A stretch of 64,000 nt of DNA from Streptomyces sp. NBC_00690 (GTDB lineage: Bacteria; Actinomycetota; Actinomycetes; Streptomycetales; Streptomycetaceae), in NCBI RefSeq assembly GCF_036226685.1, contig NZ_CP109009.1:310001-374000 (forward strand), in the 5' to 3' direction. A program made the position numbers and the translations under genes. Below the pieces are notes generated by a model, which worked only from the letters and a program-made list of their open reading frames with translations, was not told where the DNA came from and ran no database searches. Position 1 is the first letter of the stretch; the number at the start of each line of letters is the position of its first letter. Below, one piece after another: positions 4,529-27,802 of this stretch.

Positions 4529-5075
4529 GCGTTCTCCCTACTCGCTGGCCTGGGCGGTCGATGCGCCCGTTGGGCCGGATGAGGTTCGTCGGGGTGTGGT
4601 TCGGGGCCGCCCGAGCACCGGACTCTCGGCCCCGGAGCGCGGCAGCCGGGCGGCGCCGTTGGGTGGTGTTGCTGGTACTGAGTCGAGGTGTTTCAGGTCG
4701 TGAACATCATGCGAACGCCTTCGAGAGCTGAGGCTCGCTTGGCCGGCGCCGGTGAGAGGGGCACCGGCAGGCAGCTGAGTGCTCCCCGCGACCACGAGCC
4801 CGTCGAGCGGCCCGCGTTGCCTGCTCCTACCCGCTCTGACGTGGGATGTTGCGAAGGGAGCCGGACTCGGTGGGCGGTGGCCGGTTCACGGGCCCACACC
4901 ACCGATTTCCACGAACTCTCCACTAAGGCGTCACAAGTACGACAGAGGCGCGCTATTGTTCGCGTGCCCCGCCGAATGGTCCAGACCATATCCAAGTGCG
5001 AGGGTTGCGCGCTATGCCCATGCCCGTCTTCAGTACCTCCCCCTTGTAGGCCAACTCCCCAGCCCACAAACGCTC
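4529..5075. other. Divergent intergenic region between the deacetylase and the NRPS locus
   Basis: 547 bp without a convincing gene. It must hold the promoters of the minus-strand deacetylase (start 4528) and of the NRPS locus (start 5076). The one clear regulatory signal is the palindrome at 4976-4989. Open frames across the region are out of phase or lack codon bias. Confidence 0.6.
4976..4989. promoter_or_regulatory. DasR-like (GntR/HutC) operator upstream of the NRPS genes
   Basis: ATGGTCCAGACCAT is a perfect 6-bp inverted repeat around a 2-bp centre. It differs by one base in the core from the TGGTCTAGACCA palindrome bound by DasR, the GlcNAc-responsive Streptomyces repressor. It ends 86 bp before the ATG at 5076. 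DasR is known to control chitin use, development, antibiotics and siderophores, so control of this locus is plausible. Another GntR-family regulator could also recognise the site. Confidence 0.6.
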
Positions 5076-8000
5076 ATGGAGGGCATCATCAACGCATCGT
5101 CAGCTCGGTTGACCGTCCCGGACCTGCTGGATTCGCGAGCTGCGAACCAGCCTGACACCATCGCCATCCAGGTGTGCGGCGGCGGCCTCCTCACCTACGG
5201 CGCCTGGCGTCACCGGGCGATCCAGGCCGCTCGGGGTCTGGCGTCCGCGGGCGTACGACCGGGCGGTGTGGTCGCCCTGCGCTTCATCGATCAGGCGTGG
5301 GACCAGTACGCGGTGGCATACCTGGCCGTTCACTACGCCGGCGCTGTGGCCTTGCCGCTGCGCGCCGACCTCGCCGAACAGGAGGCTGGGCGGCTCGTCG
5401 AACTCTGTGGGGCGACCGCAGTACTGCGCGGCACGGAACTGCCCGGGCTACCCGGCACATCGGATCATGTCCTCGCCCAACCCGCGGACCTCGCCGAACT
5501 CGTCGACCTGGCGGGGAGCGGCCTCGATGACACCGAGCCCCCGTCCCGCCCGGCCCCCGAGGATCCCGCCCAGATCATCGGCACCTCGGGAACCACCGGC
5601 ACAACGAAGGGCGTCCTCGCCTCACACGCCAACCTCACCGCCGGGCAACGTTTGAACCCACGCCCACGCCCCTATGCGCACTCGCGTCACGCGATTCATG
5701 CCTTTCCCATCGGTACCAACGCGGGTCAGATGATGCTGTTGGGCGCCCTCACCGGAGCTCCCACCACCGTGGTCCTGCCGCGCTTCGACGCCGAGGAGTT
5801 CGGTCGGGCCGTGGAGGAACTGCGGATCGGTACCGCCTTCCTCGTGCCGTCGATGGCCATCGAGCTGTTGAACTCCGATGTGCCCTCGCGTCGGGACCTT
5901 TCGAGCGTACTGCTGCTCAGTTCATCCGCCGCCGCACTGCCCGCGCCCGTCGCCCACGCATTGGTCGAGGCGTTGCCGAAGGCGACGGTCGTCAATGTGT
6001 ACACCTCGGCGGAAGCCGTGCCCGCACAGCTCTCCATGGTGGTGGACCTGGCCAGACCCGGTTCGGTGGGCCGCCCGACCGATCCGGGGGACCTACGGAT
6101 CCTCGATGCGGCGGGCAACGAAGTGCCGGTCGAAGGGGTCGGTGACGTCTGGCTGCGGCAGCCGGGCCCCGCACGCAGCTATGTCGGGGCCCCCGCCGGT
6201 GGGGCTGGCGTCTTCCGCGACGGCTGGGTACGGATGGGCGATCTCGGACGCCTGGACGAGGACGGCTATCTGCATCTGGTCGACCGGGAGAGCGATGTCA
6301 TCAAGTCCGGTGCCCTCAAGGTCTCCACCCTGCGGATCGAGGACGCTCTGCACGAGCATCCGGACGTAGCGGACGCGGCGGCGCTCGGCCTGCCGCACCC
6401 CGTGATGGGTGCGGTGCCCGTGGCGCTGGTGGTGCCAGCCACTCACGGCCTTGACCTCGATGCACTGAGGCTTTTCCTCAGTACCCGGCTGAGCCGCCCC
6501 GAACTTCCCGTGCGGGTGCTGATCGCCTCGGACCTACCGCGCAATGCCACCGGAAAGGTGCTCAAACAGCAGTTGCGTCCGCTCTTCGAAGCCGCCGAGG
6601 CATCTCCCACCGACACATCCGCGCGGCCGGGCGCCGAAACGCCCCGCACCGCCACGGAACGGGGGCTCGCAGAGCTCTGGCAGGAGGTGTTGGGACGCCC
6701 GGTGCGCGATGTGGCCGACGAGTTCTTCGCACTCGGCGGTGACTCCTTCCGGGCCGTTCAACTGGCGGCAGCCGTCTCCAACCGATTCGGGGTCGAAGCG
6801 GGTTCCACCTTGGTCTTCGGACGCCCTTCGCTACGGGCGCAAGCGGCGTGGTTGGACGCGACCGCGGCCACGGAGCCGATGGCAAGCGCCGATGAAGGTG
6901 CCGAGACAGCGGTGGTACCCGACTTCCTCCGGGCGTTGCGCACCCAGCCGCATGAGGTTCCCCTGACCAGTCAGCAGGAGAATTTCCTCGACTGGATGGC
7001 CGAGGAGACCGGGCGCGACGTGGGCGCGGTGACCGCGCTCTTCCGAGTGACCGACCGATTGGACCGGGAGTCGCTCGGCGAGGCCCTGACCGACCTCGTT
7101 CGGCGGCATCCGGCCCTGCGCACCCGGTTCGTCCCGGTGCCGGGCGAGGTCCCAGGGCTCGTACGGACCGTGCTCGACGAGGAGCCCAGGGTCCGGATCG
7201 CGCTGGTGGACGCGCCCGACGCCACCGATGCGGAGGTCAACGCCCTCCTCATCGCCGAGCGGGACAGGCTCACCGATCTCGGCGAGGACCCCACGACCCG
7301 ACTGCTGGTGGTCAGCCGTGGCCCCGAGGAGCACATCGTGCTGCTGGCGGTGCATCACATGGTGGCCGACGGCTGGTCGATCGGTGTACTCCTGCATGAG
7401 TTGGGACTCGGCTATGACGCACTGCGACGCGGTCGGGCGCCACGGTTGCCCGACCACGCGATGCCGTATCAGGACCTGGTGCGGTGGACCAACTCCCGTT
7501 GGGCCGCGGGTCGCCGTCATTTCGCCGCAGCGCTCGAAGGTGCTCCGACCGCGCTCGAACCCTTCCCCGGTCGACGCGCCGTCGACCAGGTCCACACGGT
7601 TGCCCATCCCTTCACCATCGACGCCGGAGACGCCGGCCGGTTGCGGGAGCGGGCCGGGTTGCTCGGGGTGACCCCCTTCATGGCGATCGCCGCCTTGTGG
7701 AGCGGGTTGCTGGCGGCCCGTAGCGGTCAAAGCGACCTGGTGTTGATGACTCCCGTGCCCGGGAGGACCAGGCCCGAGGCGCAGAGGGTGGTCGGCTGCC
7801 TGGTGCAGTCCCTGCTGCTGCGGGTGGACTGTTCCGGTGGACCGGGCTTCGCCGAGCTGGCCGAACGAGTCCGGATGGCCGCCACCGGAGCACTCGATCA
7901 CCAGCTCTACCCGTACGCCGAGTTCAAACCGTCGGTGGTGGCGTTCCCCGCCTGGTTGCGATACGAGAACTGGGCCGCCGACGCCCATCTGCCCGGCCTG

Positions 8001-8210
8001 CTCTGCGAGCCGTGGGTGGTGCCGCGCGGCACCACCGTTCCCTGGCCGCTGCCCGGCGGTGACCTGGGAGTTCCCGAGCTGACCGCCGTCGAGCAACCGG
8101 ACGGTGGCCTGAGCTGTTGGATCCAGTTCAACTCACTGGCGTTCGAGCGGGATGACATCGCCGCTCTGGCCGCCGAATTCACGGTCGCGCTGGTCACAGC
8201 CGGCCACTGA
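5076..8210 (+). CDS. NRPS loading protein A-PCP-C, predicted to activate a carboxylic acid
   Basis: 1044 residues in three domains. The adenylation domain (residues ~10-520) shows A3 at 171 (SGTTGTTKG), VNVYTSAEA, MGDLGRLDEDGYL and the A10 Lys in RNATGK. The carrier protein has LGGDS with its phosphopantetheine Ser at 557. The condensation domain (~620-1040) has HHMVADG at 760-766. Where amino-acid-activating domains have the Asp that grips the alpha-amino group, this one reads HAFPIGTNAG, with no Asp. It therefore probably loads an acid (fatty, aryl or keto) rather than an amino acid. The ATG at 5076 has no clear Shine-Dalgarno site, so the start is less certain. A 118-bp gap separates it from the next NRPS gene. 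Confidence 0.85.
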   Translation: MEGIINASSARLTVPDLLDSRAANQPDTIAIQVCGGGLLTYGAWRHRAIQAARGLASAGVRPGGVVALRFIDQAWDQYAVAYLAVHYAGAVALPLRADLAEQEAGRLVELCGATAVLRGTELPGLPGTSDHVLAQPADLAELVDLAGSGLDDTEPPSRPAPEDPAQIIGTSGTTGTTKGVLASHANLTAGQRLNPRPRPYAHSRHAIHAFPIGTNAGQMMLLGALTGAPTTVVLPRFDAEEFGRAVEELRIGTAFLVPSMAIELLNSDVPSRRDLSSVLLLSSSAAALPAPVAHALVEALPKATVVNVYTSAEAVPAQLSMVVDLARPGSVGRPTDPGDLRILDAAGNEVPVEGVGDVWLRQPGPARSYVGAPAGGAGVFRDGWVRMGDLGRLDEDGYLHLVDRESDVIKSGALKVSTLRIEDALHEHPDVADAAALGLPHPVMGAVPVALVVPATHGLDLDALRLFLSTRLSRPELPVRVLIASDLPRNATGKVLKQQLRPLFEAAEASPTDTSARPGAETPRTATERGLAELWQEVLGRPVRDVADEFFALGGDSFRAVQLAAAVSNRFGVEAGSTLVFGRPSLRAQAAWLDATAATEPMASADEGAETAVVPDFLRALRTQPHEVPLTSQQENFLDWMAEETGRDVGAVTALFRVTDRLDRESLGEALTDLVRRHPALRTRFVPVPGEVPGLVRTVLDEEPRVRIALVDAPDATDAEVNALLIAERDRLTDLGEDPTTRLLVVSRGPEEHIVLLAVHHMVADGWSIGVLLHELGLGYDALRRGRAPRLPDHAMPYQDLVRWTNSRWAAGRRHFAAALEGAPTALEPFPGRRAVDQVHTVAHPFTIDAGDAGRLRERAGLLGVTPFMAIAALWSGLLAARSGQSDLVLMTPVPGRTRPEAQRVVGCLVQSLLLRVDCSGGPGFAELAERVRMAATGALDHQLYPYAEFKPSVVAFPAWLRYENWAADAHLPGLLCEPWVVPRGTTVPWPLPGGDLGVPELTAVEQPDGGLSCWIQFNSLAFERDDIAALAAEFTVALVTAGH

Positions 8211-8328: not shown

Positions 8329-11300
8329 GTGATCAGTATCCCCACCGGCCCTGCCCAGCAGGGCATCTGGGTCAATGAGCGGCTCGCTCCGCTCGGTTCC
8401 GTCCACCACATGCCGTTCGCCGTCCACTTCGAGGGCGCCTTGGACGAATCGGCGCTGGCCGCTGCCTGTGCGGACCTCGCCGGCCGGCATCCTGCCCTGG
8501 CGATGACCGTGCAGGAGGAGCACGGACTGCCGGTGCTCACGGCAGGCCCACCACCTGAGCTGACGATGCATCAGTCGACGCCCGAGCGGCTGCCCTCGGA
8601 GCTCGCAAGGCTCAGCGCCGAACCGTTCGACCTCGCGGCGGGGCCCCCGGCCCGCTTCGCCCTTCTGCGCATCGACGAATCCCATGCCACCCTGCTGGTG
8701 GTGGTGCATCACATCGTCTTCGACGGCACTTCGACCGATGTGTTCCTGCACGATCTGGCGGCCTGCTACGCCCACCGCACGGGTACGGGCGCCCCTCTTG
8801 TTCCACTCCCCTCGTTGGACTCGTCCGACCAGGTCGAACCGGGTCCTGATGCGCTCGCCGCGGCCAAGGCCCACTGGTCCGACAGACGACTGCCTGATGG
8901 CGAGGTACTGCTGCCCGGACTGACCGAGCTCCCGGACGGTGTCGGGCCTGGTGCGGCCGTGGCCTTCGACCTACCGACGGAGCTCCGTGCCGAGCTGATC
9001 GTGACCGCCGACAAGCTCGGTGTCACCCTGTTCGAACTGCTGCTGACCGCGGTGCACACCCTGCTGCTGCGCTACGGCAACGAGCACCCGGCGATCGCCG
9101 TCGACCTCGGCACCCGCGGCCCGGAAGAGGCCGAGCGGATCGGCGCGTACGTCAATGAGCTGCCCGTGGTGACCACGCCCCAGCCGGGGATGTCGTTCGA
9201 CGAGTTCGCCCGTGCGGTGCGCACCGAGTTGCGCAGCGGCTATCCACACCGTCGGGTGCCACTGGCCCGTGCCGTCCGCGGACTGCGGCCCGGTGTGTCG
9301 CTCGCACCGGTCTCCTTCACCTATCGCCGACGCATCGCACCGGTCTCGTTCTCGGGGTTGCGCACCACGATCGACTGGGTGCTCTTTCCCGGCACGGCTC
9401 GGGGCGCGCTGCGGGTGCATCTGGTGGATGGGCCGGATCGGCTCGGCGTCCTCCTGATGCATCGGACGGACGCGCTCGCCGCGGACCGGGCCGAGCGGAT
9501 CGGTGCCCATCTGCGACGACTCCTCACCGCGATATCCGTGGCCCCCGGCACCTCGCTCGTGGATCTGCCGGTGTTGGACGAGGCGGAGTCGGCCCCGTTG
9601 CGGGGGGCGGCCCCCGCCTCCGACGCGGCGGGCGCCACCCTGCCCTCGCTGCTGAGGGGCTCCTTCGCGGCGTACCCCGACCAAGTCGCCGTGGTGGCGG
9701 GTGGGCGCACACTGACGTACGCCGAACTGGCGGCGGCTTCACACGGACTGGCGGGTCGTCTGATCGGGGCTGGGGTCGGACCTGGCACGGTGGTCGCCGT
9801 CTGCGCCGAGCGGTCGCCGGAGATGCTGGCAGCCGTACTCGCCGTCACCTTGGCCGGTGGCGTCTATCTGCCCGTCGACCCCTCGTACCCGGCGCAGCGC
9901 ATCGCCCATGTCCTCATGGACGCCAAGGCACCGGTCGCTCTGGCTCAGCGGCGTACGGCTGAGCGAGTCGCAGGAACCGGCCTGACGGTGTTGTTGGACG
10001 ATCTCTTCGACACCGCTCCGACCGCTGCCGACCAGGGTCGTCCGCTCCCGACGGTGGCGCCGGACGATCTCGCGTACCTCATCTACACCTCGGGCTCCAC
10101 CGGTAGGCCCAAGGGCGTCGAGGTACCGCAGGGAGCGCTGGCCCATCTACTACTGGCCTTCCGTGACCAACTGGCGGCGACACCCGAGGCCGTCTGGCTG
10201 GCCGTCACCTCGCTCTCCTTCGATATCTCGGCCCTGGAACTCCTGCTACCACTGGTGAGCGGGGGCCGGGTGGTGATCGCCGACGAATCGCAGGTGAGGG
10301 ATGGCAGGGCCTTGGTCGAACTCGTCGAACGCCAAGCGGTCACTCATGTGCAGGCGACCCCGTCGAGGTGGCGGCTCATGTTGGACGCCGGGCTGACCGC
10401 ACCTGCCCTCACGGCCCTCAGCGGCGGCGAGGCACTGCCCCTGCCGCTGGCCCGCCGCCTTCGTTCGCAGGTGGGACGGCTCTGGAACGTCTACGGTCCG
10501 ACCGAAACCACGATCTGGTCGACCAGCGCGGAGATACCGCCCGCACCGGACGAGGTGAGCATCGGCAGACCGATCGCGGGTACGACGGCGCTGGTCGTCG
10601 GCCCGGACGGCCGTCCCGTACCGCACGGTGTGACCGGCGAACTGGCACTGGGCGGTGCGGGCCTGGCCCGGGGCTACCGGGGACGGCCTGACCTCACCGC
10701 CGCCCGCTTCGTGATCGACCCCGGGTCCGGAGCACGTCACTACCGCACCGGCGACCTGGCCCGGGTGCGCCCGGATGGCGCTCTGGACTGCTTCGGCCGA
10801 CTCGACGACCAGATCAAGTTGCGCGGCCATCGGATCGAACTCGGTGAGATCGAGGCCAGATTGCAGGAGCACCCCGCGGTGGCAACGGCCGCCGTCGCGG
10901 TGCACGGGAGCGCGGACGACCCCGGCGGACAGGTGCTCGTCGGCTATCCGGTGTGGCGCCCCGGGACTGCGGCAGCGGACACCGCCGAGTTGCGGTCCTT
11001 CCTCGCACGCACGCTGCCGGACGTGATGGTGCCAGGCATCTTCCACGTACTCGGCGAACTGCCGCTGACGCCGAACGGCAAGACCGACCGCGGAGCCCTG
11101 CCCGCTCCCGTCCATGAGCAATCGACGACGGGGGTGCAGCAGTCGAGCGAGTCGGGGGACGAACCATGGGACGAGCTGACCTCGGAGGTGGCCGCGATCT
11201 GGTGTGAGGTGTTGGGTCTGTCGTCCATTGGTCGGTACGACGATGTGTTCGATCTGGGCGCCCACTCCCTGACGATTACACAGGTCGCGTCCAGGATCCG

Positions 11301-11406
11301 ACGCAGGCTCGGGGTGGAGGTGCCCCTCCAGGTGTTCTACGAGGAGCCGACCGTGGCCGCCGTGGCCGATGCCGCCGCCCTCGAACTGCTGGCTGAGGGG
11401 CACTGA
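8329..11406 (+). CDS. NRPS module C-A-PCP, glycine predicted
   Basis: 1025 residues from a GTG preceded by GAGGA. The condensation domain spans ~1-420 with HHIVFDG at 127-133. The adenylation domain spans ~440-930 with SGSTGRPKG at 588, NVYGPTETT, YRTGDLARV and NGKTDR. The carrier protein has LGAHS with Ser 980; the motif's second Gly is Ala. My hand alignment to GrsA gives the binding-pocket code D-I-L-Q-L-G-V-I-W-K, one residue from the DILQLGLIWK code known for glycine. The stop and the next start share a base (TGATG), so translation is coupled. Both this protein's N-terminal C domain and the preceding protein's C-terminal C domain look intact, so two C domains meet at this junction. Confidence 0.88.
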   Translation: MISIPTGPAQQGIWVNERLAPLGSVHHMPFAVHFEGALDESALAAACADLAGRHPALAMTVQEEHGLPVLTAGPPPELTMHQSTPERLPSELARLSAEPFDLAAGPPARFALLRIDESHATLLVVVHHIVFDGTSTDVFLHDLAACYAHRTGTGAPLVPLPSLDSSDQVEPGPDALAAAKAHWSDRRLPDGEVLLPGLTELPDGVGPGAAVAFDLPTELRAELIVTADKLGVTLFELLLTAVHTLLLRYGNEHPAIAVDLGTRGPEEAERIGAYVNELPVVTTPQPGMSFDEFARAVRTELRSGYPHRRVPLARAVRGLRPGVSLAPVSFTYRRRIAPVSFSGLRTTIDWVLFPGTARGALRVHLVDGPDRLGVLLMHRTDALAADRAERIGAHLRRLLTAISVAPGTSLVDLPVLDEAESAPLRGAAPASDAAGATLPSLLRGSFAAYPDQVAVVAGGRTLTYAELAAASHGLAGRLIGAGVGPGTVVAVCAERSPEMLAAVLAVTLAGGVYLPVDPSYPAQRIAHVLMDAKAPVALAQRRTAERVAGTGLTVLLDDLFDTAPTAADQGRPLPTVAPDDLAYLIYTSGSTGRPKGVEVPQGALAHLLLAFRDQLAATPEAVWLAVTSLSFDISALELLLPLVSGGRVVIADESQVRDGRALVELVERQAVTHVQATPSRWRLMLDAGLTAPALTALSGGEALPLPLARRLRSQVGRLWNVYGPTETTIWSTSAEIPPAPDEVSIGRPIAGTTALVVGPDGRPVPHGVTGELALGGAGLARGYRGRPDLTAARFVIDPGSGARHYRTGDLARVRPDGALDCFGRLDDQIKLRGHRIELGEIEARLQEHPAVATAAVAVHGSADDPGGQVLVGYPVWRPGTAAADTAELRSFLARTLPDVMVPGIFHVLGELPLTPNGKTDRGALPAPVHEQSTTGVQQSSESGDEPWDELTSEVAAIWCEVLGLSSIGRYDDVFDLGAHSLTITQVASRIRRRLGVEVPLQVFYEEPTVAAVADAAALELLAEGH

Positions 11407-14400
11407 TGGAACGCCTCGACACCAGCCCTCCCGCGTCGGCCGCTCCTGAGGTGCGCCGCCCCCGCCCCGCGCTCAGCGATCAACAGCGGGCGCTGCTCGC
11501 CCGTCGGCTGAGGGAGCGCACCGCGGACCGGCCGCCGATCATCGGGCCCCGCCCGGCGGGAACCCCCGTACCGCTCTCTCTCGCTCAGGAACGCCTCTGG
11601 TTCATCGAGCAGTTGACACCCGGTACCGCCTCCTTCGTCCTGCCGACCGCTGGCCGGCTCCTCGGGCCGCTACGACCCGAGGCGCTGGCCGGGGCCCTGG
11701 ACCGGGTGGCGGCGAGACACGAGACCTTGCGCAGTGCGTTTCCCGTCGACGAGGACGGCGCCCCGCGGGTGCTGATCACTCCGGCCCCCGAGTTCACCGT
11801 GCCCTGGGACGTCCGAGACCTGACCGAACTGCCCACCGACGCCCGGGAGGCCGCCGCTCGTGGTCTGGTCGAAGCAGAGGTCGACCGCGCGTTCGACGTG
11901 GCGGAAGGGCCGTTGTTGCGGGCCCTGCTGATCCGCCTGGATGTTCAGGATCACGTGCTGGTGATCTGCCAGCACCATCTCGTCGGGGACGGCTGGTCCG
12001 CCGGCATACTTCTGGACGAACTACTCAGTGGCCATGAGGAGTTGACTTCCAAAGGGCAGCCCGGATCATCGGGCACGCTCCCTTTGACCTACGGCGACTT
12101 CGCGCACTGGCAGCGCGAGCGCCAGGAGCGCCCGCAGGCCGCCGCCGACCTCCAGTACTGGTGTGATGCTCTGACCGGGGTGCCACCGCTGGAGCTGCCC
12201 ACCGACCGCCCGCGCCCCGCCCTGCCGGGGCCGGGTGGGGCGACCTTCGCCTTCCGGCTCGATCCCGCGACCTACGAAGCGGCCCGGGTGTTGGCGCGCG
12301 CTCAGGGCGTCACCCTCTATATGACCCTGCTGGCCGCATTCCAAGTCGTGCTCGGCCGTTGGTCGGGGCAGCGGGACTTCGCCGTCGGCACCCCGTTCGC
12401 GGGACGCCTGGTGGAGGAGACCGAGCAGCTGATCGGCCTGTTCAGCACCATGTTGCCGCTTCGGGCCGAGCTGAGCGGACCGTCGGGGGCCATGGCGCCC
12501 GACGGTGAGCCGACCACGGCCGACTCACCCGACTTCGCCACCGTGCTGGCTCGGGTCCGTGTGGCGGCACTCGGGGCGCAGCAGCACCAGGAGACCCCGT
12601 TCGAGCGGCTGGTGGAGGCGCTGGACCTCCCGCGCGAAGTCAGCCGTCCGCCGCTCTTCCAGGTCTCCTTCGCATTGCAGAACCACCGCGCGCAGGAGTT
12701 CCGCCCGCGGGAGCTGGAGTGGCGCACCTTCCCCTTCGAGGGCAGCGGCGTCCATCTGGACCTCGGTCTGTACTGCACCGAGACCGACGGCGGTCTGGAC
12801 GCCTTCTTCACCTACCGCACCGATCTGTGGGACGCGGCCACCGTCGCCCGGCTGGCCAGGCACTGGCAGCGGGTGCTCGGTGCGGCTGCCGCCGATCCGC
12901 ACACCCCCATCGACCGGCTGGAACTGCTCACACCCGCAGAGCGCCACCAGGTCCTCAACGAGTGGAACGACCAGGGAACGGCCGTCGCGATCGCGGGCAC
13001 ACTCGCCGAGGCGATCGCCGCACAGACCGCCCGCACGCCGGACGCCACCGCATTGGTGCACCGGGGCGAGAGGCTGTCCTTCGCGGATCTCGACCGGCGC
13101 GCCAACCGTCTGGCGCACCTTCTGCGCTCTGCGGGTGCCGGTCCCGACAAGCTCGTGGGAGTGTGCCTCGACCAAGGGCTGGACCAGGCCGTTTCACTGC
13201 TCGCGGTGCTCAAGTCGGGTGCGGCGTATGTGCCGCTCGATCCAGAGCAGCCGCGTGAGCGACTTCGCCATATGCTGACCGATTCGGCGCCGGTGGTACT
13301 GGTCACCACCGCAGCCCACGGCGGTCTGCTGGCCGGTTCGACCGCCCCCGTACTGCGCCTTGACGAGGTGGCGGCCGAGCTCGCCGCCGTGCCCGACACC
13401 GCACCGGAGGGTGGCGCGGGTCCGGACCATCTGGCGTATGTGATCTACACCTCGGGCTCCACCGGAACGCCCAAGGGCGTGGCCGTGCAGCACCGCCAGG
13501 TCCTCGTCTATCTCGCCGGGGTGCGGCAGCGGTTCGCCGAAGCCGGGCTGCGGGACGGTGCCCGCTACCTCCTGTTGCAGTCGCTGGCCTTCGACTTCGG
13601 TCTGACCACCCTCTATCTCTCGCTCACCACCGGTGGATGTCTGCATCTGCTGGCCGCGCGCACCTCGGGCCCCGAGGTCGCGGCGCACCTCGCGGCCGAG
13701 GGCATCGACTGCGTCAAACTCACCCCGTCACACCTGGCCGCGCTGACTGCCGAGGTGGACGATCCGGCGGCCCTGCTACCGCGTCGACTGTTGATCCTCG
13801 GTGGCGAGGCGTCGAGTTGGGAGTGGAGCCGTCGACTGGCGCAGCTCGGTGCGCGGACCGGCTGTCGGGTGGTCAATCACTACGGTCCCACCGAGGCCAC
13901 CGTCGGTGTGACGACCCTGTTGGTCGATCCCGAGCAGCCCGCCGCGGGTTCCACCACTCCCATCGGGCGTCCGCTCCCCGGGGCCAGGGTCTATCTGCTC
14001 GACGCCCATATGTCGCCGGTGCCCGTCGGAGTGCCCGGCGAGCTCTGGATCGGTGGTGACCGGCTGGCGCGCGGCTACCTCGGCCTGCCGGAACTGACGT
14101 CGGAACGCTTTCGTACCGATCCGTTCGTCGACACCGGGACGGACCGGGCCCGGATGTACCGCACCGGTGATCTGGCCCGGTACCGGGCCGACGGCACCGT
14201 GGAGTTCCTGGGCCGCGGCGACCACCAGGTGAAGATCCGTGGCTATCGGGTCGAACTGGGCGAGGTGGAAGCCCATCTGGTTCGGTTGCCTTCGGTCGCT
14301 CAGGCCGTCGCAGCGGCTCGCGGACCCGTCGGGGAACTCACGCTCGTCGGCTATCTGGTGCCCACGGAGGGCGCCGCGCCACCGCCGGTTGCCGAACTGC

Positions 14401-17063
14401 GCCGGCTGCTGGCCGAGCAGTTGCCTGACTATCTGATCCCGTCCCGCTTCGTCCTCCTGCCCGAGCTGCCCCGACTGGCACACGGCAAGGTCGACCGGCG
14501 CGCCCTGCCGGAGCCGGGGGCGGCCGGTCCATGCTCGGGCACCGAGTACATCGCCCCTCGCAATCCGGTCGAGGAGACGATCGCCGGAGTGTGGGCGGAC
14601 CTGCTCGGGCTGGAACGCGTGGGGGCCGAGGACGACTTCTTCGACCTCGGCGGCCATTCCCTGCTGGCGATCCGTATGGTGGCAGCGTTGCGCAGACTGC
14701 TCGACGGACAGGCGCCGCTCACCTTGATGGACGTCTTCCAGGAGCGTACGGTGGCCGCGCTCGCCACGCTGGCCGGTCGGTCCGAGGAGGAACGCGGCCC
14801 GCGCCGACTGCTCCATGAGCTGACTGCCCGTCAGCCAGCTGAGGCCGTGACGCTGTCGCTGATCTGTCTCCCGTACGGCGGCGGAAGCGCGGTGGTCTAC
14901 CAGCCGCTCGCCGATGCCCTACCGCCCGGAGTGGCTCTACACGCGGTCGCCGTCCCGGGGCACGACCTCGGCATGTCCGAAGAGTCACTGCCGCTGGAGG
15001 AGGTCGCCCGGCGCTGTGCCGAAGAGGTGCTGGCCGGCGTATCGGGCCCGGTGGCCGTCTACGGGCACTGCGGGGTCGGGGCGGCGTTGGCGGTGGAGCT
15101 GGCGCGGCAACTGGCAGCGGCGGAACGTGAACCCGCCGCGGTCTATCTGGGCGGGATCTTCCCGTTCGCGCGCCCGACGGAGGGACTGCTCGGGCTGCTC
15201 GCCCGCTTCTCCGTGCTCGATCGACGGCGTAGCGGAAGGCTCCATCTGAACTGGTTGCGCTCGATGGGCGCCGATCTGGAGGGGTTGGAGCCCGAGCAGT
15301 TGGCGACCATCGTCCACAACGTCCGAGAGGACTCACGGGCGGCAGAGGCGTACTTCACCGAGCGGCTGGCGGAGCCCGCGTGCGGGCTGACGTCACCGGT
15401 GGTTTCGGTGATCGGCTCGGCCGATCCCGGCACCGACTTCCACCGGGAGCGGTTTCGGGAGTGGGGATTCCTCGGTGGCACCACTGCCGTGGCCGTCCTG
15501 GACGAGGGGGGTCACTACTTCCTCAAGCACCGGGCGGCCGAACTCGCCGAGATCGTCACCACGGTCCACCCTGCGGTCATCGACACCGGCGCGGACGAGC
15601 TGACCCGTGAGGAGCGCCCTGAGCGGGCGACCTGGTGGTTGGACGGCGTCCACCGGGAGGCTACGGCCGAGGACGATCCGGTCGAGGCGGCGCCGCGCAC
15701 CCGTCGTGACACCCGACGGTTCGTGGTGGTGGCCGGCTCGCAGCTGATCTCGCAAACGGGATCGGCACTGACCGAGTTCGCCCTGCCGCTCTGGATCTAC
15801 CTCGCGACCGATTCGGTCGCCTGGTTCGGTCTGTTCGCCGTGCTGGGCATCGCACCGGGGCTGCTGGCGGCCCCCGTACTCGGTGGGCTCGTCGACCGGA
15901 TCGATCGGCGGCGGGTGATGCTGTGCTGCACCGTTGTCTGCGGTACGGCCGAGGCGGTGCTCGCCCTCTTGGATGCATTCGGGAATCTACGTCCCTGGCA
16001 CGTCGGGGTGTTGATGGCGATCCTGTCGGTTTCGCTCACGGGCCAGCGCTTGGCCTTCCAGTCGGCGATCCCGCAATTGGTCCCCAAGCGCTACCTCGGC
16101 CATGCCAACGGGATCGTGCAGATCTCGGGCGGCATCGCCCAGGTGGTTGCGCCACTGGCGGCGGTGGGCATGCTGGCCGCGATCGGCCTGAGCGGGGTGC
16201 TCCTGCTGGACGTCGTCAGCTACACCGCTGCGGCGGCGGTGCTGCTGCTGGTGCGCTTCCCGCGCACCTTGCCCTCGCAGCGCCGGGAGACCTTGCGTCA
16301 AGAGATCGCGGCCGGGTTCCGGTTGGTCATTCGGCAGCGCGGATTCCGCGCGATGCTGATCTTCTTCGCCGTGTTGAACCTCTTCCTACCGGTGCTCTTC
16401 CAACTGATTTCGCCGCTCGTCCTCGGATTCTCCAGTCTGGGTTCGGTTGCCGCGGTGTCGCTGGCCGGTGGCGCGGGCGCGGTGGTCGGCGGGTTGGCGA
16501 TGGGCGTGTGGGGCGGCCCGCGAAGGCGCCGGATGCGGGGCATGCTGCTGGTGGTGCCGGTCCTAGCGCTCTTCTGTGTCCTCACCGGGCTGCGCCCTGA
16601 CCTCCTGGTGGTGGGCGCAGGTGTGTTCGGCATGTCGGCGTCCCTCTCCCTGCTCAACGGCATCTATCTGACGATCGTCCAGGTGAAGGTGCCGCAGCGG
16701 TTCCACGGACGGGTGATGGCGCTCAACCAATTGGTCGCCTGGTCCACCCTGCCCATCGGATACTTGCTGATCGCCCCGTTGGGCAGCCAGTTCCTGGAAC
16801 CGCTGATGGTGGAGGGCGGTGGGCTCGCCGACACGGTGGGTGCCTTGTTGGGAACGGGGACGGGCCGTGGCATCGGGCTGCTCTACCTCGTGCTCGGCGC
16901 CGCGATCCTGGTGCTCGGGGCGGTGTCCTTGCGGATCCGGGCGCTGTCCCGGTTCGACCAGGATGTCCCGGACGCACAGGCTGACGACCTGGTCGGTCTC
17001 GCCGCGCTCACGGCCGAACAGAAGGATCGCCCACGGGCCGAAAGCATCGCCGCACGGGAGTGA
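11406..17063 (+). CDS. NRPS C-A-PCP-thioesterase fused to a major-facilitator exporter; aspartate predicted
   Basis: 1885 residues. Condensation: HHLVGDG at 190-196. Adenylation: SGSTGTPKG at 683, pocket Asp at 730, NHYGPTEAT, NRxG-like A8 and HGKVDR. My pocket code is D-F-T-K-I-G-H-V-G-K, close to aspartate codes of the DLTKVGHIGK type. Carrier protein: LGGHS, Ser 1085. Thioesterase (~1115-1400): the nucleophile elbow reads GHCGVG, so the nucleophile is Cys 1222 instead of Ser, with Asp in GSADPG and His in GGHYF completing the triad. From ~1436 to ~1865 lies an MFS transporter with about 12 hydrophobic segments and VLGGLVDRIDRRR as the cytoplasmic 2-3 loop motif. The fusion would put release and export in one membrane-bound protein. 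Confidence 0.88.
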   Translation: MERLDTSPPASAAPEVRRPRPALSDQQRALLARRLRERTADRPPIIGPRPAGTPVPLSLAQERLWFIEQLTPGTASFVLPTAGRLLGPLRPEALAGALDRVAARHETLRSAFPVDEDGAPRVLITPAPEFTVPWDVRDLTELPTDAREAAARGLVEAEVDRAFDVAEGPLLRALLIRLDVQDHVLVICQHHLVGDGWSAGILLDELLSGHEELTSKGQPGSSGTLPLTYGDFAHWQRERQERPQAAADLQYWCDALTGVPPLELPTDRPRPALPGPGGATFAFRLDPATYEAARVLARAQGVTLYMTLLAAFQVVLGRWSGQRDFAVGTPFAGRLVEETEQLIGLFSTMLPLRAELSGPSGAMAPDGEPTTADSPDFATVLARVRVAALGAQQHQETPFERLVEALDLPREVSRPPLFQVSFALQNHRAQEFRPRELEWRTFPFEGSGVHLDLGLYCTETDGGLDAFFTYRTDLWDAATVARLARHWQRVLGAAAADPHTPIDRLELLTPAERHQVLNEWNDQGTAVAIAGTLAEAIAAQTARTPDATALVHRGERLSFADLDRRANRLAHLLRSAGAGPDKLVGVCLDQGLDQAVSLLAVLKSGAAYVPLDPEQPRERLRHMLTDSAPVVLVTTAAHGGLLAGSTAPVLRLDEVAAELAAVPDTAPEGGAGPDHLAYVIYTSGSTGTPKGVAVQHRQVLVYLAGVRQRFAEAGLRDGARYLLLQSLAFDFGLTTLYLSLTTGGCLHLLAARTSGPEVAAHLAAEGIDCVKLTPSHLAALTAEVDDPAALLPRRLLILGGEASSWEWSRRLAQLGARTGCRVVNHYGPTEATVGVTTLLVDPEQPAAGSTTPIGRPLPGARVYLLDAHMSPVPVGVPGELWIGGDRLARGYLGLPELTSERFRTDPFVDTGTDRARMYRTGDLARYRADGTVEFLGRGDHQVKIRGYRVELGEVEAHLVRLPSVAQAVAAARGPVGELTLVGYLVPTEGAAPPPVAELRRLLAEQLPDYLIPSRFVLLPELPRLAHGKVDRRALPEPGAAGPCSGTEYIAPRNPVEETIAGVWADLLGLERVGAEDDFFDLGGHSLLAIRMVAALRRLLDGQAPLTLMDVFQERTVAALATLAGRSEEERGPRRLLHELTARQPAEAVTLSLICLPYGGGSAVVYQPLADALPPGVALHAVAVPGHDLGMSEESLPLEEVARRCAEEVLAGVSGPVAVYGHCGVGAALAVELARQLAAAEREPAAVYLGGIFPFARPTEGLLGLLARFSVLDRRRSGRLHLNWLRSMGADLEGLEPEQLATIVHNVREDSRAAEAYFTERLAEPACGLTSPVVSVIGSADPGTDFHRERFREWGFLGGTTAVAVLDEGGHYFLKHRAAELAEIVTTVHPAVIDTGADELTREERPERATWWLDGVHREATAEDDPVEAAPRTRRDTRRFVVVAGSQLISQTGSALTEFALPLWIYLATDSVAWFGLFAVLGIAPGLLAAPVLGGLVDRIDRRRVMLCCTVVCGTAEAVLALLDAFGNLRPWHVGVLMAILSVSLTGQRLAFQSAIPQLVPKRYLGHANGIVQISGGIAQVVAPLAAVGMLAAIGLSGVLLLDVVSYTAAAAVLLLVRFPRTLPSQRRETLRQEIAAGFRLVIRQRGFRAMLIFFAVLNLFLPVLFQLISPLVLGFSSLGSVAAVSLAGGAGAVVGGLAMGVWGGPRRRRMRGMLLVVPVLALFCVLTGLRPDLLVVGAGVFGMSASLSLLNGIYLTIVQVKVPQRFHGRVMALNQLVAWSTLPIGYLLIAPLGSQFLEPLMVEGGGLADTVGALLGTGTGRGIGLLYLVLGAAILVLGAVSLRIRALSRFDQDVPDAQADDLVGLAALTAEQKDRPRAESIAARE

Positions 17064-18250: not shown

Positions 18251-18922
18251 ATGAATCGCATACGTACCGTACTCGTCACGCTCGGTCTGACCGCCGGTTT
18301 GATGGGCGCTCCCACGGCGAGCGCCGCACCGCAGGAAGTGGACCTGTCGGCGTCGGCCAAGCATCAGCCGTGCACCGGGGAGTTCCGGGGAGACCCGAGG
18401 CTCGGGCCGAAGTGGCTGCCGAAGAAGAGGCAAGCGCCGGTGGGTCCGCTCCTCAAGGGCTACCAGCGCACCGGAAAGCTCTCCCCTTCGGCCTTCCTCA
18501 AGAAGTACTGGGACGGGCCGGCGGACTCAGGCGGTTGGAAGTACCCGCCGAACGACGGCTTCGGCGAGGTCAACGGCGGGATCGACAAGGAGCCCACGAA
18601 GCTGCGCCCGGGCCAGCGGCTCGATCGGTTCGGCTCCGAGTTCGGCAGCTACCTCGCCCCCGCGGGTGACGCCTACGCCGAGCGCGCACTGCCCCCGCAG
18701 AACCTCAACACCCGTGACGCGGCGGTGGCCTGTGACTACCGCGTCTACAAGGTGGCCAAGCCGTTCTGGGTCTGGCAGGGCAGCATCGCCCCGTGGTTCG
18801 AGCAGCCCGGAGGCGGCCAGCAGATCAAACTGGACCCGGTGTTCCTCAACCCGGGCCAGGACCAGCGGCTCAATGTGAAGTGGCTGCTGGACCGTGGCTA
18901 TCTCACATCCGTTGCCCAGTAG
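18251..18922 (+). CDS. Secreted TNT-type NAD+ glycohydrolase toxin
   Basis: 223 residues. Residues 1-26 form a Sec signal peptide ending APTASA-A, so the protein is exported. The rest matches the tuberculosis necrotizing toxin (TNT) domain: GWKYPPNDGF, the LDRFGSEFGSYLAP block, AERALPP, YRVYKV and a closing WFEQPGGGQQIKLDP. The Gln in the GGGxQ motif and the Arg of DRFGS are at the positions used by M. tuberculosis TNT for NAD+ binding and hydrolysis. It is a stand-alone secreted form, not the tail of an RHS or WXG polymorphic toxin. A probable immunity gene follows directly. Confidence 0.85.
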   Translation: MNRIRTVLVTLGLTAGLMGAPTASAAPQEVDLSASAKHQPCTGEFRGDPRLGPKWLPKKRQAPVGPLLKGYQRTGKLSPSAFLKKYWDGPADSGGWKYPPNDGFGEVNGGIDKEPTKLRPGQRLDRFGSEFGSYLAPAGDAYAERALPPQNLNTRDAAVACDYRVYKVAKPFWVWQGSIAPWFEQPGGGQQIKLDPVFLNPGQDQRLNVKWLLDRGYLTSVAQ

Positions 18923-21117: not shown

Positions 21118-22950
21118 TCACTCGGCCGTCAGCACCCACAGTCGATGGTCCCAGCCGATGTCACGGCAGCTGTGGACGGTCAGACCGGCGCGGGCTGCCA
21201 GTTCGCTCAGTTGGTCCGCCGAGCGCACTCCGGAGCCGAAGGCGCAGGTGAGTCGCAGATGGTGGAGGGTTGCGTCGACATCGTCGGTGTCGGCGGCCGT
21301 GACCTGCTCGACCATGATGAGCTCACCACCTGCCGGCAGTCCCGCAGCGGTCTCGGCGAGGACCACCACGGCGTCGTCGTCGGGCAGTCGATCGAGCAGA
21401 TGGCAGACGAGGACGGTCTGACCGCCGCGCGGCACCTGGTTGCTCTGCGGTACCAGTTCGATGCGTGCGAGCACATCGGTGTCCAGGATCTGCTCCTCCA
21501 GCAGCTTCAGCTGGGAAGGTACGTCCACGATGCGTACCTTGAGCCCGGCGAACTCCTTCGCCAGGGCGTTGACCACCGTCCCCACACCGTCGCCCGCCGC
21601 GGTCAAGGCGGTGACGGAGGACCAGTCGTACGCCGCCGACACACCGGGCGCGACCCAACGCGTCTCCTCCTCGACGGCGGCGCGGGCCGAGGTGCCGAGG
21701 CGGACGTCGTCCCGCATCGCCTCGGCCAAGGTCTGGCCGCCCAGCGTGCGGTAGCCCGCGGCTCCGGTACGAACCGTGTCGAGGAGTCCGGCGATCGACA
21801 GGTCGAACGCGGCCTGAGCCCCGCGGAGGTCGTACTCCTCCGCGGAGTGGTCGTCCTCGACGAGTTCCTCGCTGATGGCGGTGAGACGGTATCCGCGTTC
21901 ATCGGTGGTGAAGACGTCGATCGCCTCCAGGTACGACATCAGCGCGGCGAGCACGGAGGGGTTGGACCCACTGCGACGCGCCAGTTCCTCCAGGTCGCGC
22001 ACTCCGCCGTGGACCAGATCCACCAGACCGAGGGTGACGGCCGTACGGATCGCATAGGCGGGGGCCAGATCGGTGAGGTCATGCAGTCGCTCGTGTGCCT
22101 CGTCCTCCTCGTCCTCCGCGGCAGCGGCGTCCACGCCCGGGGCGTGCGGCGTGTACCGCCAGTAGCCGGTGATGTGGGTCCGATCGCGCGGAACCTTCCG
22201 TTCCGACGCGAGGTGACGGCGGATCCCTTTGAGTGCACCCGCCTCGCCCGCGGCCCAGACGAAGACCTCGCCCGGCAGCCACTCGACGCCACGCAGGGCG
22301 TCTTCCAGCACGGTGGTGGTGCCCGCCGGTGCGCCCTGGCGGGAGAGCCAGGTGATCTCGGCGTCGGCCTCGGTCGGCAGGTCCTGACGGTGGCTGTCCT
22401 CCCCCACCTCGATCAGTACGCGCGCCCGAGTGCCGGCGGGCATCTCGGCGAGCCATCGGCCGATCGCGGGCAGAGCCGTCTCGTCACCGATCACCAGCAG
22501 CCAGTCGACGCCTTCGGGGTGACTGTGGGACATCTTCGGGCCGGCGATCCAGGTGATCTCACCGGGCTCAACCGCCTCGGCCCAGGCGGAGGCGATCCCG
22601 CCCTCATGGCGTACGAAGTCGAAGTCGATCTCACCGGCTTCGGGGTCGAACCTGACGGGCGTGTAGTCCTTGGCGATCGGCCGGGCGTCCGCGGGCCAGT
22701 CGAGGCTGCTCACGTTCTGCCTCGGGAGCACCGGGGCGTCATCGCCTTCGGCGAAGAAGAACTTCACATGGTCGTCGAAGCCGTCCGAGCGCAGCGGAGG
22801 GAGTTCCAGGCCATGGGTCTCGAAGGCGCGCAGTTGCTCGCCGCCCAGGGTGATCCGGCGCATTCCTGGTGTGACGTCCCTGACGCGCAGCACGGTCAGT
22901 TCCCTGAGCACGATGGGAAAGGTGACTACCGAACGGGGACTGCGCGACAT
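21118..22950 (-). CDS. Siderophore-interacting FAD reductase fused to an O-methyltransferase-like domain
   Basis: 610 residues. ATG at 22950 has AAGGAG 8 nt upstream, which fixes the start. Residues ~15-280 are a siderophore-interacting protein: RRITLGGEQL, KDYTPVRFD (flavin binding), WIAGPKMSH, LLVIGDETALPAIGRWL (NAD(P)H side) and HITGYWRYTPH. Such proteins reduce ferric siderophores to release iron. Residues ~300-610 follow plant-type O-methyltransferases: a dimerisation winged helix (LGLVDLVHGGVRDLEELARRSG) and a Rossmann half. The SAM-binding glycine loop is degenerate: where such enzymes have a DxGGGxG run, this reads TAAGDGVG. It is divergent from the two ABC half-transporter genes. Confidence 0.85.
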   Translation of the reverse strand: MSRSPRSVVTFPIVLRELTVLRVRDVTPGMRRITLGGEQLRAFETHGLELPPLRSDGFDDHVKFFFAEGDDAPVLPRQNVSSLDWPADARPIAKDYTPVRFDPEAGEIDFDFVRHEGGIASAWAEAVEPGEITWIAGPKMSHSHPEGVDWLLVIGDETALPAIGRWLAEMPAGTRARVLIEVGEDSHRQDLPTEADAEITWLSRQGAPAGTTTVLEDALRGVEWLPGEVFVWAAGEAGALKGIRRHLASERKVPRDRTHITGYWRYTPHAPGVDAAAAEDEEDEAHERLHDLTDLAPAYAIRTAVTLGLVDLVHGGVRDLEELARRSGSNPSVLAALMSYLEAIDVFTTDERGYRLTAISEELVEDDHSAEEYDLRGAQAAFDLSIAGLLDTVRTGAAGYRTLGGQTLAEAMRDDVRLGTSARAAVEEETRWVAPGVSAAYDWSSVTALTAAGDGVGTVVNALAKEFAGLKVRIVDVPSQLKLLEEQILDTDVLARIELVPQSNQVPRGGQTVLVCHLLDRLPDDDAVVVLAETAAGLPAGGELIMVEQVTAADTDDVDATLHHLRLTCAFGSGVRSADQLSELAARAGLTVHSCRDIGWDHRLWVLTAE

Positions 22951-22980
22951 CGCTACTACTCCTTCATCAGGGGGATCGGT

Positions 22981-22999
22981 CCAGGTTAGGGGCACGGAG
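22981..22999. promoter_or_regulatory. Half iron box in the divergent SIP/ABC promoter region
   Basis: AGGTTAGG at 22983-22990 equals the left half of the actinobacterial IdeR/DmdR1 iron box (TTAGGTTAGGCTAACCTAA), but the right half is poorly matched. It sits 31 bp upstream of the SIP start. The rest of 22951-23278 holds the promoters of both gene sets and no other recognised feature. Confidence 0.3.
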
Positions 23000-23278
23000 C
23001 GGGCCCCGATCCAACCCTCCGACCTCGATGTGGCACTGTGCGCACGATTCCTGGGCGTCCGGGCGGCGAAGAGTGCGCGCATCGCCGTGGAGAGGGTCGA
23101 CAGGCCGAAGGCGCGCCCACGGTCGACGGCGACGCCCCTACCACTTCGATGACTCGCGCTCTGCCTTGGACCGAGCTCGTCGGCCTGCTCCTACGGTGAC
23201 CAGGGTCCGTGGCCCATCACCTCCCGGCCTCGGCACGTCCCCCTGCCCCCGAACCGCCGACGAGGACTGCAGCCACCT

Positions 23279-26678: not shown

Positions 26679-26687
26679 CGGACCTCG

Positions 26688-26730
26688 ACGAGAAGGCTCC
26701 GGACCGTGTCACGGTCCGGAGCCTTCTCGT
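26688..26730. terminator. Bidirectional terminator between the ABC pair and the siderophore-uptake operon
   Basis: A perfect 19-bp inverted repeat (26688-26706 against 26712-26730, core GAAGGCTCCGGACCG) closes a 5-nt loop. It lies between two convergent stops and is one of the strongest hairpins in the window. Confidence 0.9.
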
Positions 26731-26743
26731 GATGGAGGGGCGG

Positions 26744-27799
26744 CTACTTCCCTGCCACCGCCTTGACCAGGATCGGCGTCAGCTCCTCGACGACCCAGGT
26801 GGCGCTGAGGGCGTCCGGGTAGGCGATGGAGGAGGCCAGGGTGTTGTCCGAGGGGATGACCGCGTAGTTCTTCTTCTTCACCACGTTCAGGGACTGGAAG
26901 AGCTTGTTGGTCTCCAGCTCGGACGCGTTCAGCAGGCCCTCGTCGCCGAACGGGTAGGTGATCAGCAGGAGGTCGGCCTCCAGTTCGTCGAGCTTCTCCA
27001 GGCTGACGCTGTTGTTCTTGGCGCTGTAGTCCTTCGCCTTGGCGGTCTTCTGGAGGCCGAGCTTCTCGAAGATGCCCGCGTCCTGGTCGGCGTAGGACAT
27101 GAACGTGATCTGCTCGGGGTGGACGACGCTGTAGGTGTACCTCTTGCCCTTGAGCTGGGGGTTGGCCGCCGCGGCGTCGGCGATGGCCTTCTCGTTGGCG
27201 GCGATCACCTCATCGGCCTTCGCGCTGAGCCCGAGGGCCTTCGCGGCGCCCTTCAAACGCTCCTGCCAGGGCAGGGTGTCCGCGTGCTTCTTGTCCGTGT
27301 AGGTCACGACGGGGGCAATCGGCTTCAGCTTGGCGTAGGAGCCGTCCATGTCCCAGCTGTTCATGCCCAGGATGAGGTCCGGCGCCTCGGCGGCGATGGC
27401 CTCGAAGTCGATGCCGTCCGCGTCGTCGTACGTCTTCAGCTTGTCGACGTTCAGCTTGTCCATGGCGCGCTGCTTGTACTCGGCGACCTTGTCGCCGTCC
27501 TCGATGTCCGGTGTGATGACCGGGACGAGGCCGAGGGCCAGGGCGATGGAGGTGTCACCGTCGGAGACGGTGGCGACCCGGAGCGGCTTCTTCTCCACGA
27601 CGGTCTTGTCCCATGCGTTGGGCATGGTCAGCGGGTACTGGTCGGAGCCGGCGGCGGCCTTCTTGTCGCCGGTCTTGTCGGAGGAGTCGCTGCTGTCGTT
27701 GGAACCGCAGGCGGTGACGAGGCTCAGGCAGGCGGCGGAGGCCACCAGCACGCGTACCGTGCCGCGACGTGCCGAACGAGGGTGGGTGGTGCGGTTCAT
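26744..27799 (-). CDS. Ferric-siderophore-binding lipoprotein of an ABC importer
   Basis: 351 residues. The signal sequence ends in a lipobox, LVTAC at about residues 27-31, so the protein is tethered to the outer face of the membrane. A Ser/Asp-rich linker follows. The body has the FecB/FepB-type fold pattern: RVATVSDGDTSIALALGL, IDFEAIAAEAPDLILGMN, and WQERLKGAAKALG. It is the last gene of the four-gene import operon, 3 bp after the ATPase. The binding protein lying last in the operon may allow its own level to be set separately. The siderophore bound is not predictable. Confidence 0.88.
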   Translation of the reverse strand: MNRTTHPRSARRGTVRVLVASAACLSLVTACGSNDSSDSSDKTGDKKAAAGSDQYPLTMPNAWDKTVVEKKPLRVATVSDGDTSIALALGLVPVITPDIEDGDKVAEYKQRAMDKLNVDKLKTYDDADGIDFEAIAAEAPDLILGMNSWDMDGSYAKLKPIAPVVTYTDKKHADTLPWQERLKGAAKALGLSAKADEVIAANEKAIADAAAANPQLKGKRYTYSVVHPEQITFMSYADQDAGIFEKLGLQKTAKAKDYSAKNNSVSLEKLDELEADLLLITYPFGDEGLLNASELETNKLFQSLNVVKKKNYAVIPSDNTLASSIAYPDALSATWVVEELTPILVKAVAGK

Positions 27800-27802
27800 T
27801 TC

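What the first reader, a model, noticed from the sequence alone, without database searches (positions are those of the whole stretch)
11406..17063. NRPS with a cysteine thioesterase and a built-in MFS exporter
One polypeptide carries C-A-PCP-TE and then a whole MFS transporter. The TE nucleophile elbow is GHCGVG, so the nucleophile is Cys 1222 in place of Ser. Cys-type thioesterases are known where strained rings are made (obafluorin beta-lactone, sulfazecin beta-lactam). Coupling release to export in one protein suggests a product that is reactive or toxic to the producer.
Basis: partly seen in the sequence, partly recalled or inferred. Interest (0 to 1): 0.85.

Follow-up and report, generated by a model that had tools for sequence, protein, structure and literature searches.

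The report
Peptide synthetase fused to its exporter
One Streptomyces protein carries the last building station of a peptide assembly line, a cysteine-based release enzyme and a whole membrane exporter; the same fusion recurs across many actinobacteria, and its chemical product is unknown.

Summary
ORF 11406-17063 (1885 aa) is C-A-PCP-TE-MFS, with Cys1222 at the nucleophile elbow. It is no artefact: the 120 listed of 1264 homologues all carry TE and MFS, and 80 of 80 kept named-genome loci read through both in one frame.

The TE resembles ObiF1/SulM/RifR: Cys1222/Asp1340/His1370 align with ObiF1's tested triad, Asp at the unusual position II. Its elbow has one residue more than GxCxG.

Strained-ring release is only partly supported. 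In 81 fusions the last adenylation code reads Asp-like (38, window included), Ser (30), Cys-like (8) or an unassigned DTED code (5); exactly those five have Ser as nucleophile, one origin nested among Cys enzymes. Unmodified Asp cannot give a beta-lactone, and no recurrent beta-hydroxylase or sulfotransferase was seen nearby.

The window cluster is acyl-ligase-T-C, C-A(Gly)-T, C-A(Asp)-T-TE-MFS. Best reading: a small N-acyl peptide is released through a Cys acyl-enzyme and exported by the tethered MFS. Product and transport are inferred. Sequence databases already name the fusion; seven literature searches found no study of it.

The parts
4779..8210 (+). NRPS gene 1 (1143 aa as called; true start uncertain, ATG at 5076 possible): acyl-CoA-ligase-like AMP-binding domain, carrier domain, condensation domain (AL-T-C)
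   Evidence: Pfam; best NCBIfam models are acyl-CoA ligases; active-site HHMVADG; start-codon candidates
8329..11406 (+). NRPS gene 2 (1025 aa): C-A-T, ten-letter code without last position DILQLGVIW, Gly-like
   Evidence: Pfam; code letters; DILQLGMIWK listed as a Gly code in PMC12283262
11406..17063 (+). NRPS gene 3 (1885 aa): C-A-PCP-TE-MFS fusion; overlaps gene 2 by one base
11568..12953 (+). Condensation domain, residues 55-516, active-site HHLVGDG at 190
13020..14489 (+). Adenylation domain, residues 539-1028, code DFTKIGHVGK (Asp-like)
   Evidence: related code DLTKVGHVGK is Asp/Asn in PMC12283262
14577..14768 (+). Carrier domain, residues 1058-1121, GGHSL at 1082
14859..15554 (+). Thioesterase domain, residues 1152-1383, ObiF1/SulM/RifR-like
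   Evidence: Pfam; phmmer 6n8e E 1.1e-29; Foldseek
15069..15071 (+). Codon of Cys1222, nucleophile, in elbow GHCGVG
   Evidence: model places it between strand 76-80 and helix 83-98
15423..15425 (+). Codon of Asp1340, aligned with ObiF1 Asp1254 (position II)
15513..15515 (+). Codon of His1370, aligned with ObiF1 His1284
15555..15710 (+). Linker between TE and MFS, partly disordered in the model; equivalent stretch 25-116 residues in 97 fusions, 53 here
15711..16964 (+). MFS domain, residues about 1436-1853, about 12 transmembrane helices, DHA1 drug-exporter-like fold

Best explanation
The three genes are a small assembly line that makes an N-acyl dipeptide-like product. Gene 1 activates a carboxylic acid and loads it on a carrier; gene 2 adds glycine; gene 3 adds an aspartate-like residue. 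The chain moves from the last carrier to Cys1222, activated by His1370 and Asp1340, as in ObiF1. The acyl-Cys thioester resists water and is resolved by an intramolecular nucleophile, so that a cyclic, possibly reactive product leaves. The TE is tethered by a flexible linker to the cytosolic face of an MFS drug-exporter-like domain, which carries the product out as it is released. Shown by sequence: domain order, triad alignment, conservation of the fusion. Inferred: residue identities, cyclisation, export, direct hand-over from TE to MFS.
For: Pfam domain order. ObiF1 is the best solved relative (E 1.1e-29), and spacing of Cys1222/Asp1340/His1370 and small residue Gly1250 matches ObiF1 Cys1146/Asp1254/His1284/Gly1173. 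Triad kept in 81 of 81 fusions if Ser counts as nucleophile (76 CDH, 5 SDH), residue 1250 always G or A. In ObiF1 the Cys-to-Ser mutant gave only the hydrolysed acid and in SulM Cys-to-Ser hydrolysed its product, so keeping Cys fits non-hydrolytic release. Cys-nucleophile fusions load Asp-, Ser- or Cys-like residues (76 of 76), while the only clade that loads the DTED residue has Ser (5 of 5; same pairing in P0057; one origin, support 100). MFS model matches SotB, VMAT, NorA, MdfA. Close orthologues keep only these three genes: none of the other window genes tested was found beside them in S. inusitatus (L066) or G572 (L163), apart from a weak 39% ABC match.
Against: No product or transport data. 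Asp has no beta-nucleophile other than its carboxylate, so four-membered ring closure is not possible for the window enzyme unless the residue is modified. The Cys/Ser switch happened once on the tree, so it is a single event. Cys also occurs in 6 of 13 unfused relatives of unknown product. Elbow spacing differs from ObiF1. Outgroup fusions load other residues, including an Orn-like code. The residue calls rest on signature letters, not on assays.
Confidence: 0.5

Rival explanations
1. The Cys TE is an ordinary hydrolase or macrocyclase descended from RifR-like type II enzymes; Cys is a lineage habit, and the product is a linear N-acyl peptide or a larger ring (for example a six-membered N-acyl diketopiperazine closed by the Gly amide nitrogen).
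For: Relatives with position-II Asp occur unfused with Ser (7 of 13) or Cys (6 of 13). RifR and BorB, type II editing enzymes, are among the next sequence matches. No beta-hydroxylase or sulfotransferase recurs near Asp-type loci. The window residue is Asp-like.
Against: Cys conserved in 119 of 120 and 76 of 81 fusions across several families; loss of Cys coincides with a change of the loaded residue; in ObiF1 and SulM Cys suppresses hydrolysis.
Confidence: 0.35
2. The fusion is a sequencing or assembly artefact that joined an NRPS gene with a neighbouring transporter gene.
For: Fusions of this kind are unusual; separate MFS genes lie near many NRPS clusters (general knowledge).
Against: 120 of 120 listed homologues, 80 of 80 kept loci in one frame, independent genomes in several families.
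Confidence: 0.01
3. The MFS domain is not an exporter of the product but a membrane anchor, or an importer of a precursor or a metal chelate.
For: Transport was not tested; an iron-siderophore uptake locus lies 4-14 kb downstream, so a siderophore role is conceivable.
Against: Best structural matches are drug:proton antiporters and vesicular exporters; motif-A residues of the TM2-TM3 loop are invariant in 32 aligned fusions, which fits an active transporter; the siderophore genes were not found beside the cluster in two close orthologues.
Confidence: 0.14

Closest known systems
ObiF1 (obafluorin synthetase), TE domain, PDB 6n8e
   Same: C-A-PCP-TE order, Cys nucleophile, Asp at position II, small residue at position I, His before Cys
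   Different: GXCXG elbow without insertion; carries an MbtH-like domain and no transporter; loads a beta-hydroxy amino acid made by dedicated enzymes, whereas the window reads Asp-like
SulM (sulfazecin synthetase), TE domain, PDB 8w2c/8w2d
   Same: Cys nucleophile and position-II Asp in a terminal NRPS TE; second NRPS TE in the fold search
   Different: Gln-Cys-Asn motif, Dap residue and sulfotransferase define it (PMC11298585 passages); none seen here; no transporter
RifR / RedJ / BorB type II editing thioesterases
   Same: Fold and position-II Asp; among the closest sequences and folds
   Different: Free-standing, Ser nucleophile (recalled), editing rather than product release
DHA1 drug:H+ antiporters (SotB, MdfA, NorA) and VMAT
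   Different: Stand-alone transporters; 12% identity; substrates unrelated as far as known
Database entries named 'non-ribosomal peptide synthetase/MFS transporter'
   Same: Same architecture and family, listed among the 120 hits
   Different: Automatic names; no function, product or study attached in the listing
Epsilon-poly-L-lysine synthetase Pls (recalled, not tested)
   Same: An NRPS carrying transmembrane segments in the same polypeptide
   Different: Recalled as six helices and no TE or MFS; makes a polymer

Membership tests
ObiF1-type beta-lactone-forming thioesterase | Cys nucleophile | tested here: met
   Cys1222 at the elbow, C in 119 of 120 and 76 of 81 fusions; catalysis itself not assayed
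ObiF1-type beta-lactone-forming thioesterase | Asp at position II with small residue at position I | tested here: met
   Asp1340 and Gly1250 align with ObiF1 Asp1254 and Gly1173; D in 120 of 120, A or G in 120 of 120
ObiF1-type beta-lactone-forming thioesterase | GXCXG elbow spacing | tested here: not met
   GHCGVG has one extra residue
ObiF1-type beta-lactone-forming thioesterase | Terminal residue with beta-hydroxyl | tested here: inconclusive
   Window code is Asp-like; Ser code in 30 of 81 fusions of the family; no modifying enzyme recurrent near Asp-type loci (25 of 64 families shown)
ObiF1-type beta-lactone-forming thioesterase | Beta-lactone product | not testable with these tools
   needs in vitro reconstitution or product isolation
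SulM-type beta-lactam-forming thioesterase | Gln-Cys-Asn motif | tested here: not met
   His-Cys-Gly here; criterion from PMC11298585 passages
SulM-type beta-lactam-forming thioesterase | Sulfotransferase gene in the cluster | tested here: not met
   none among the window and upstream ORFs given to Pfam; those calls cover chosen ORFs of the region, not the whole genome
NRPS termination module | C-A-PCP-TE with intact core motifs | tested here: met
   Pfam; HHLVGDG and GGHSL
MFS exporter (DHA1-like) | MFS fold | tested here: met
MFS exporter (DHA1-like) | Export activity | not testable with these tools
   needs transport or secretion assay

The most novel reading that the evidence does not exclude
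This is a widespread actinobacterial family of release-and-export terminal modules in which a Cys thioesterase closes the last residue's own beta side chain on its thioester: serine to beta-lactone, cysteine to beta-thiolactone, and an aspartate-derived residue to another reactive ring. The product is passed straight into the fused MFS so that the producer is never exposed to it. The clade with Ser in place of Cys, which loads a different residue, has gone back to ordinary release.
Probability: 0.18. Interest if true: 0.9.

Novelty: new variant of a known kind. Interest (0 to 1): 0.62.

Why it matters
If TE and MFS cooperate, one polypeptide both releases and exports a natural product, a design that could be tested and borrowed in pathway engineering. 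The family is a mining handle: fusions occur in several actinobacterial families, often in several copies per Streptosporangiaceae genome, with a natural series of terminal residues (Asp-, Ser-, Cys-like, DTED) and a natural Cys-to-Ser replacement. That series makes the open question 'does a Cys nucleophile with position-II Asp mean strained-ring release?' directly testable beyond ObiF1 and SulM.

Tried and rejected
Artefact: rejected. Siderophore role because of the iron-uptake genes at 21-31 kb: kept only as a weak rival, since those genes were not found beside the cluster in L066 or L163. Beta-lactone from beta-hydroxy-Asp: looked for a recurrent hydroxylase; 56 of 60 selected neighbour proteins of Asp-type loci were scanned; 64 families matched and the 25 most frequent were shown, none of them a TauD-type or Asp hydroxylase or a sulfotransferase; a family hit by a single protein could be hidden. 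Two of 56 match DUF4246, of unknown function. Free-standing MFS relatives in two small genomes (G304, G045): no TE found by tblastn in the 6.5 and 19.5 kb held. PHROGs gave nothing for the TE. The MFS alone gave no sequence match in the PDB up to E 1. Meaning of DTEDIGTIIK: no paper found by string and absent from the passages of PMC12283262; acidic letters suggest a basic side chain (inference). My second code reader misplaces position 278 (it gave H instead of K for the window), so its fourth letter was not used; the N2 code was re-read. The elbow insertion is not strictly confined to one group: 3 of 120 hits lack it, as do 8 of 54 genome-search loci (two of the 54, L021 and L036, are one gene). 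Fungal papers PMC9495618 and PMC11057048 (passages) list domain strings with TE-MFS for polyketide or hybrid enzymes or clusters; unrelated to this family as far as seen and not pursued. Searches of papers bearing on the fusion; their result lists were seen as listings only, except the papers named above. Papers used as passages: PMC6668435, PMC11298585, PMC12283262.

Full report
1. The object. Window ORF 11406-17063 (+) encodes 1885 aa. Pfam gives Condensation, AMP-binding, PP-binding, Thioesterase and MFS_1 in that order. NCBIfam gives only general NRPS, ligase and 'H+ antiporter' models, none above its cut-off except the generic adenylation-domain model (best 25 of 111 families shown). Two NRPS genes precede it: 4779-8210, an acyl-CoA-ligase-like domain, carrier and C domain, and 8329-11406, C-A-T. 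Gene 2 and gene 3 overlap by one base. The three genes occur together in S. inusitatus (L066) and in an unnamed same-genus genome (L163); of the other 12 window genes tested none matched there except one weak ABC hit at 39%. I take these three genes as the core cluster.

2. Not an artefact, and not rare. 1264 homologues of the TE-MFS part reach E <= 1e-3 and the 120 listed all have TE and MFS domains. At E <= 1e-100, 23 of 392 genomes of the genus and 21 of 394 of the class match, the window's genome included in both; only two candidates per genome were scored, so these are lower bounds. All 80 read through TE and MFS in one frame. With the TE alone, 32 of 394 class genomes match at E <= 1e-18, and five of them hold five matches each.

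3. The thioesterase. ObiF1 is the best solved match (E 1.1e-29), followed by BorB, RifR and SulM. ObiF1's tested residues Cys1146, Asp1254, His1284 and Gly1173 (PMC6668435, passages) fall on Cys1222, Asp1340, His1370 and Gly1250; the spacing from the Cys (108 to Asp, 138 to His) agrees with the chain positions. In 81 fusions the triad reads CDH in 76 and SDH in 5, with G or A at 1250. PMC11298585 (passages) says that among the NRPS TEs it compared only ObiF1 and SulM have Asp at position II. The AlphaFold model (mean pLDDT 81, 32 sequences) puts Cys1222 between a strand and a helix, Asp1340 after the strand at model residues 192-197 and His1370 after that at 219-225. Foldseek ranks ObiF1 first, SulM and RifR within the first 13. 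The elbow is GHCxxG, one residue longer than GXCXG. In some searches the longer form is found in 46 of 54 and 80 of 80 loci; distant fusions have GHCxG.

4. What is loaded. The A-domain letters at the ten recalled specificity positions read DFTKIGHVGK in the window. PMC12283262 (passages) lists DLTKVGHVGK for Asp and Asn, DVWHLSLVDK for Ser, DLYNLSLIWK and DLYNMSLIWK for Cys, DILQLGMIWK for Gly. So the window's last residue is Asp-like (two letters from the listed code) and gene 2 reads Gly-like (DILQLGVIW). In 81 fusions: Asp-like 38, Ser 30, Cys-like 8, DTED 5. In the 120 protein hits: Asp-like 47, Ser 69, and one each of Cys-like, DTED, another code and no data. Every Ser-nucleophile fusion seen with a readable code has DTED: 5 of 5, P0057, and the 4, of which 3 are the same sequences as. 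On a quick maximum-likelihood tree of 97 rows these nine rows form one group (support 100) among Cys enzymes. It is one event. The tree is drawn with midpoint root, has 17 open forks and warns of long branches.

5. Origin of the fusion. Of 17 more distant TE places fetched, 4 are fused and 13 show no MFS within the 9-11 kb held (tblastn E 1e-4). In 12 of these 13 the ORF ends within 12 residues of the TE. Their nucleophile is Ser in 7 and Cys in 6, with Asp at position II. Three further weak places (G919, G023, G963) were not fetched. So an MFS was joined to a Cys TE of an older Ser/Cys lineage (inference).

6. Neighbours. Within the held flanks of the 80 loci, an acyl-ligase gene was called in 27 and two or more branched-chain ketoacid dehydrogenase subunits in 21 (Pfam of cluster representatives). 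Acyl-ligase: 18 of 37 Asp-type, 5 of 5 DTED-type, 3 of 30 Ser-type, 1 of 8 Cys-type. Gene calling was a simple GC3 method and flanks are cut at 10 kb, so these are minimum counts. The dehydrogenase suggests a branched acyl starter in part of the family (inference); the window has no such gene in the ORFs annotated.

8. Mechanism. Steps shown by sequence: domain order, triad, conservation. Steps inferred: loading of an acid, Gly and Asp; transfer to Cys1222; intramolecular release; export. Beta-lactone or beta-thiolactone formation fits Ser- and Cys-type relatives. For the window it would need a modified Asp; otherwise the Asp carboxylate or the Gly amide nitrogen must be the nucleophile, or the product is linear. 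I therefore put cyclising Cys release plus export at 0.5 and ordinary release at 0.35.

9. Known or new. The architecture is present in sequence databases under the automatic name 'non-ribosomal peptide synthetase/MFS transporter'. Seven full-text searches of the held open-access library gave no paper that I could recognise as describing it (listings, with passages of two fungal papers). Subscription papers are largely missing from that library, so a published study may exist. I rate it a new variant of a known kind.

Noticed in passing
window 21118-23082 (-): One ORF of 654 aa joins a siderophore-interacting protein (FAD_binding_9, SIP) with an O-methyltransferase (Dimerisation, Methyltransf_2).
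   Followed up: no
window 18251-18922 (+): Small protein with a C-terminal TNT domain (PF14021, 1e-32) of the NADase toxin kind, followed by an unassigned 89-aa ORF.
   Followed up: no
window 23279-30728: Iron-siderophore uptake locus: two ABC half-transporters, periplasmic binding protein, ATPase and two FecCD permeases, with AraC-type regulators at 20125 and 30862.
   Followed up: partly
L074, L076, L078, L082, L073: Fusions with Ser instead of Cys at the nucleophile and the DTEDIGT[IV]IK adenylation code; a natural Cys-to-Ser replacement.
   Followed up: partly
L074:12391-20677 and similar loci (L078, L082, L107, L143): Clusters with free-standing acyl ligase, C-T, C, C-T and A-T genes beside the fusion: more condensation domains than adenylation domains.
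   Followed up: partly
G948, G1002, G1026, G1034, G1096: Five matches to the TE per genome, nearly all in long NRPS-sized frames: the family has multiplied in Streptosporangiaceae.
   Followed up: no
L158: Distant fusion whose last adenylation code DVGEAGSIDK resembles an Orn code (recalled), with canonical GHCxG elbow.
   Followed up: no
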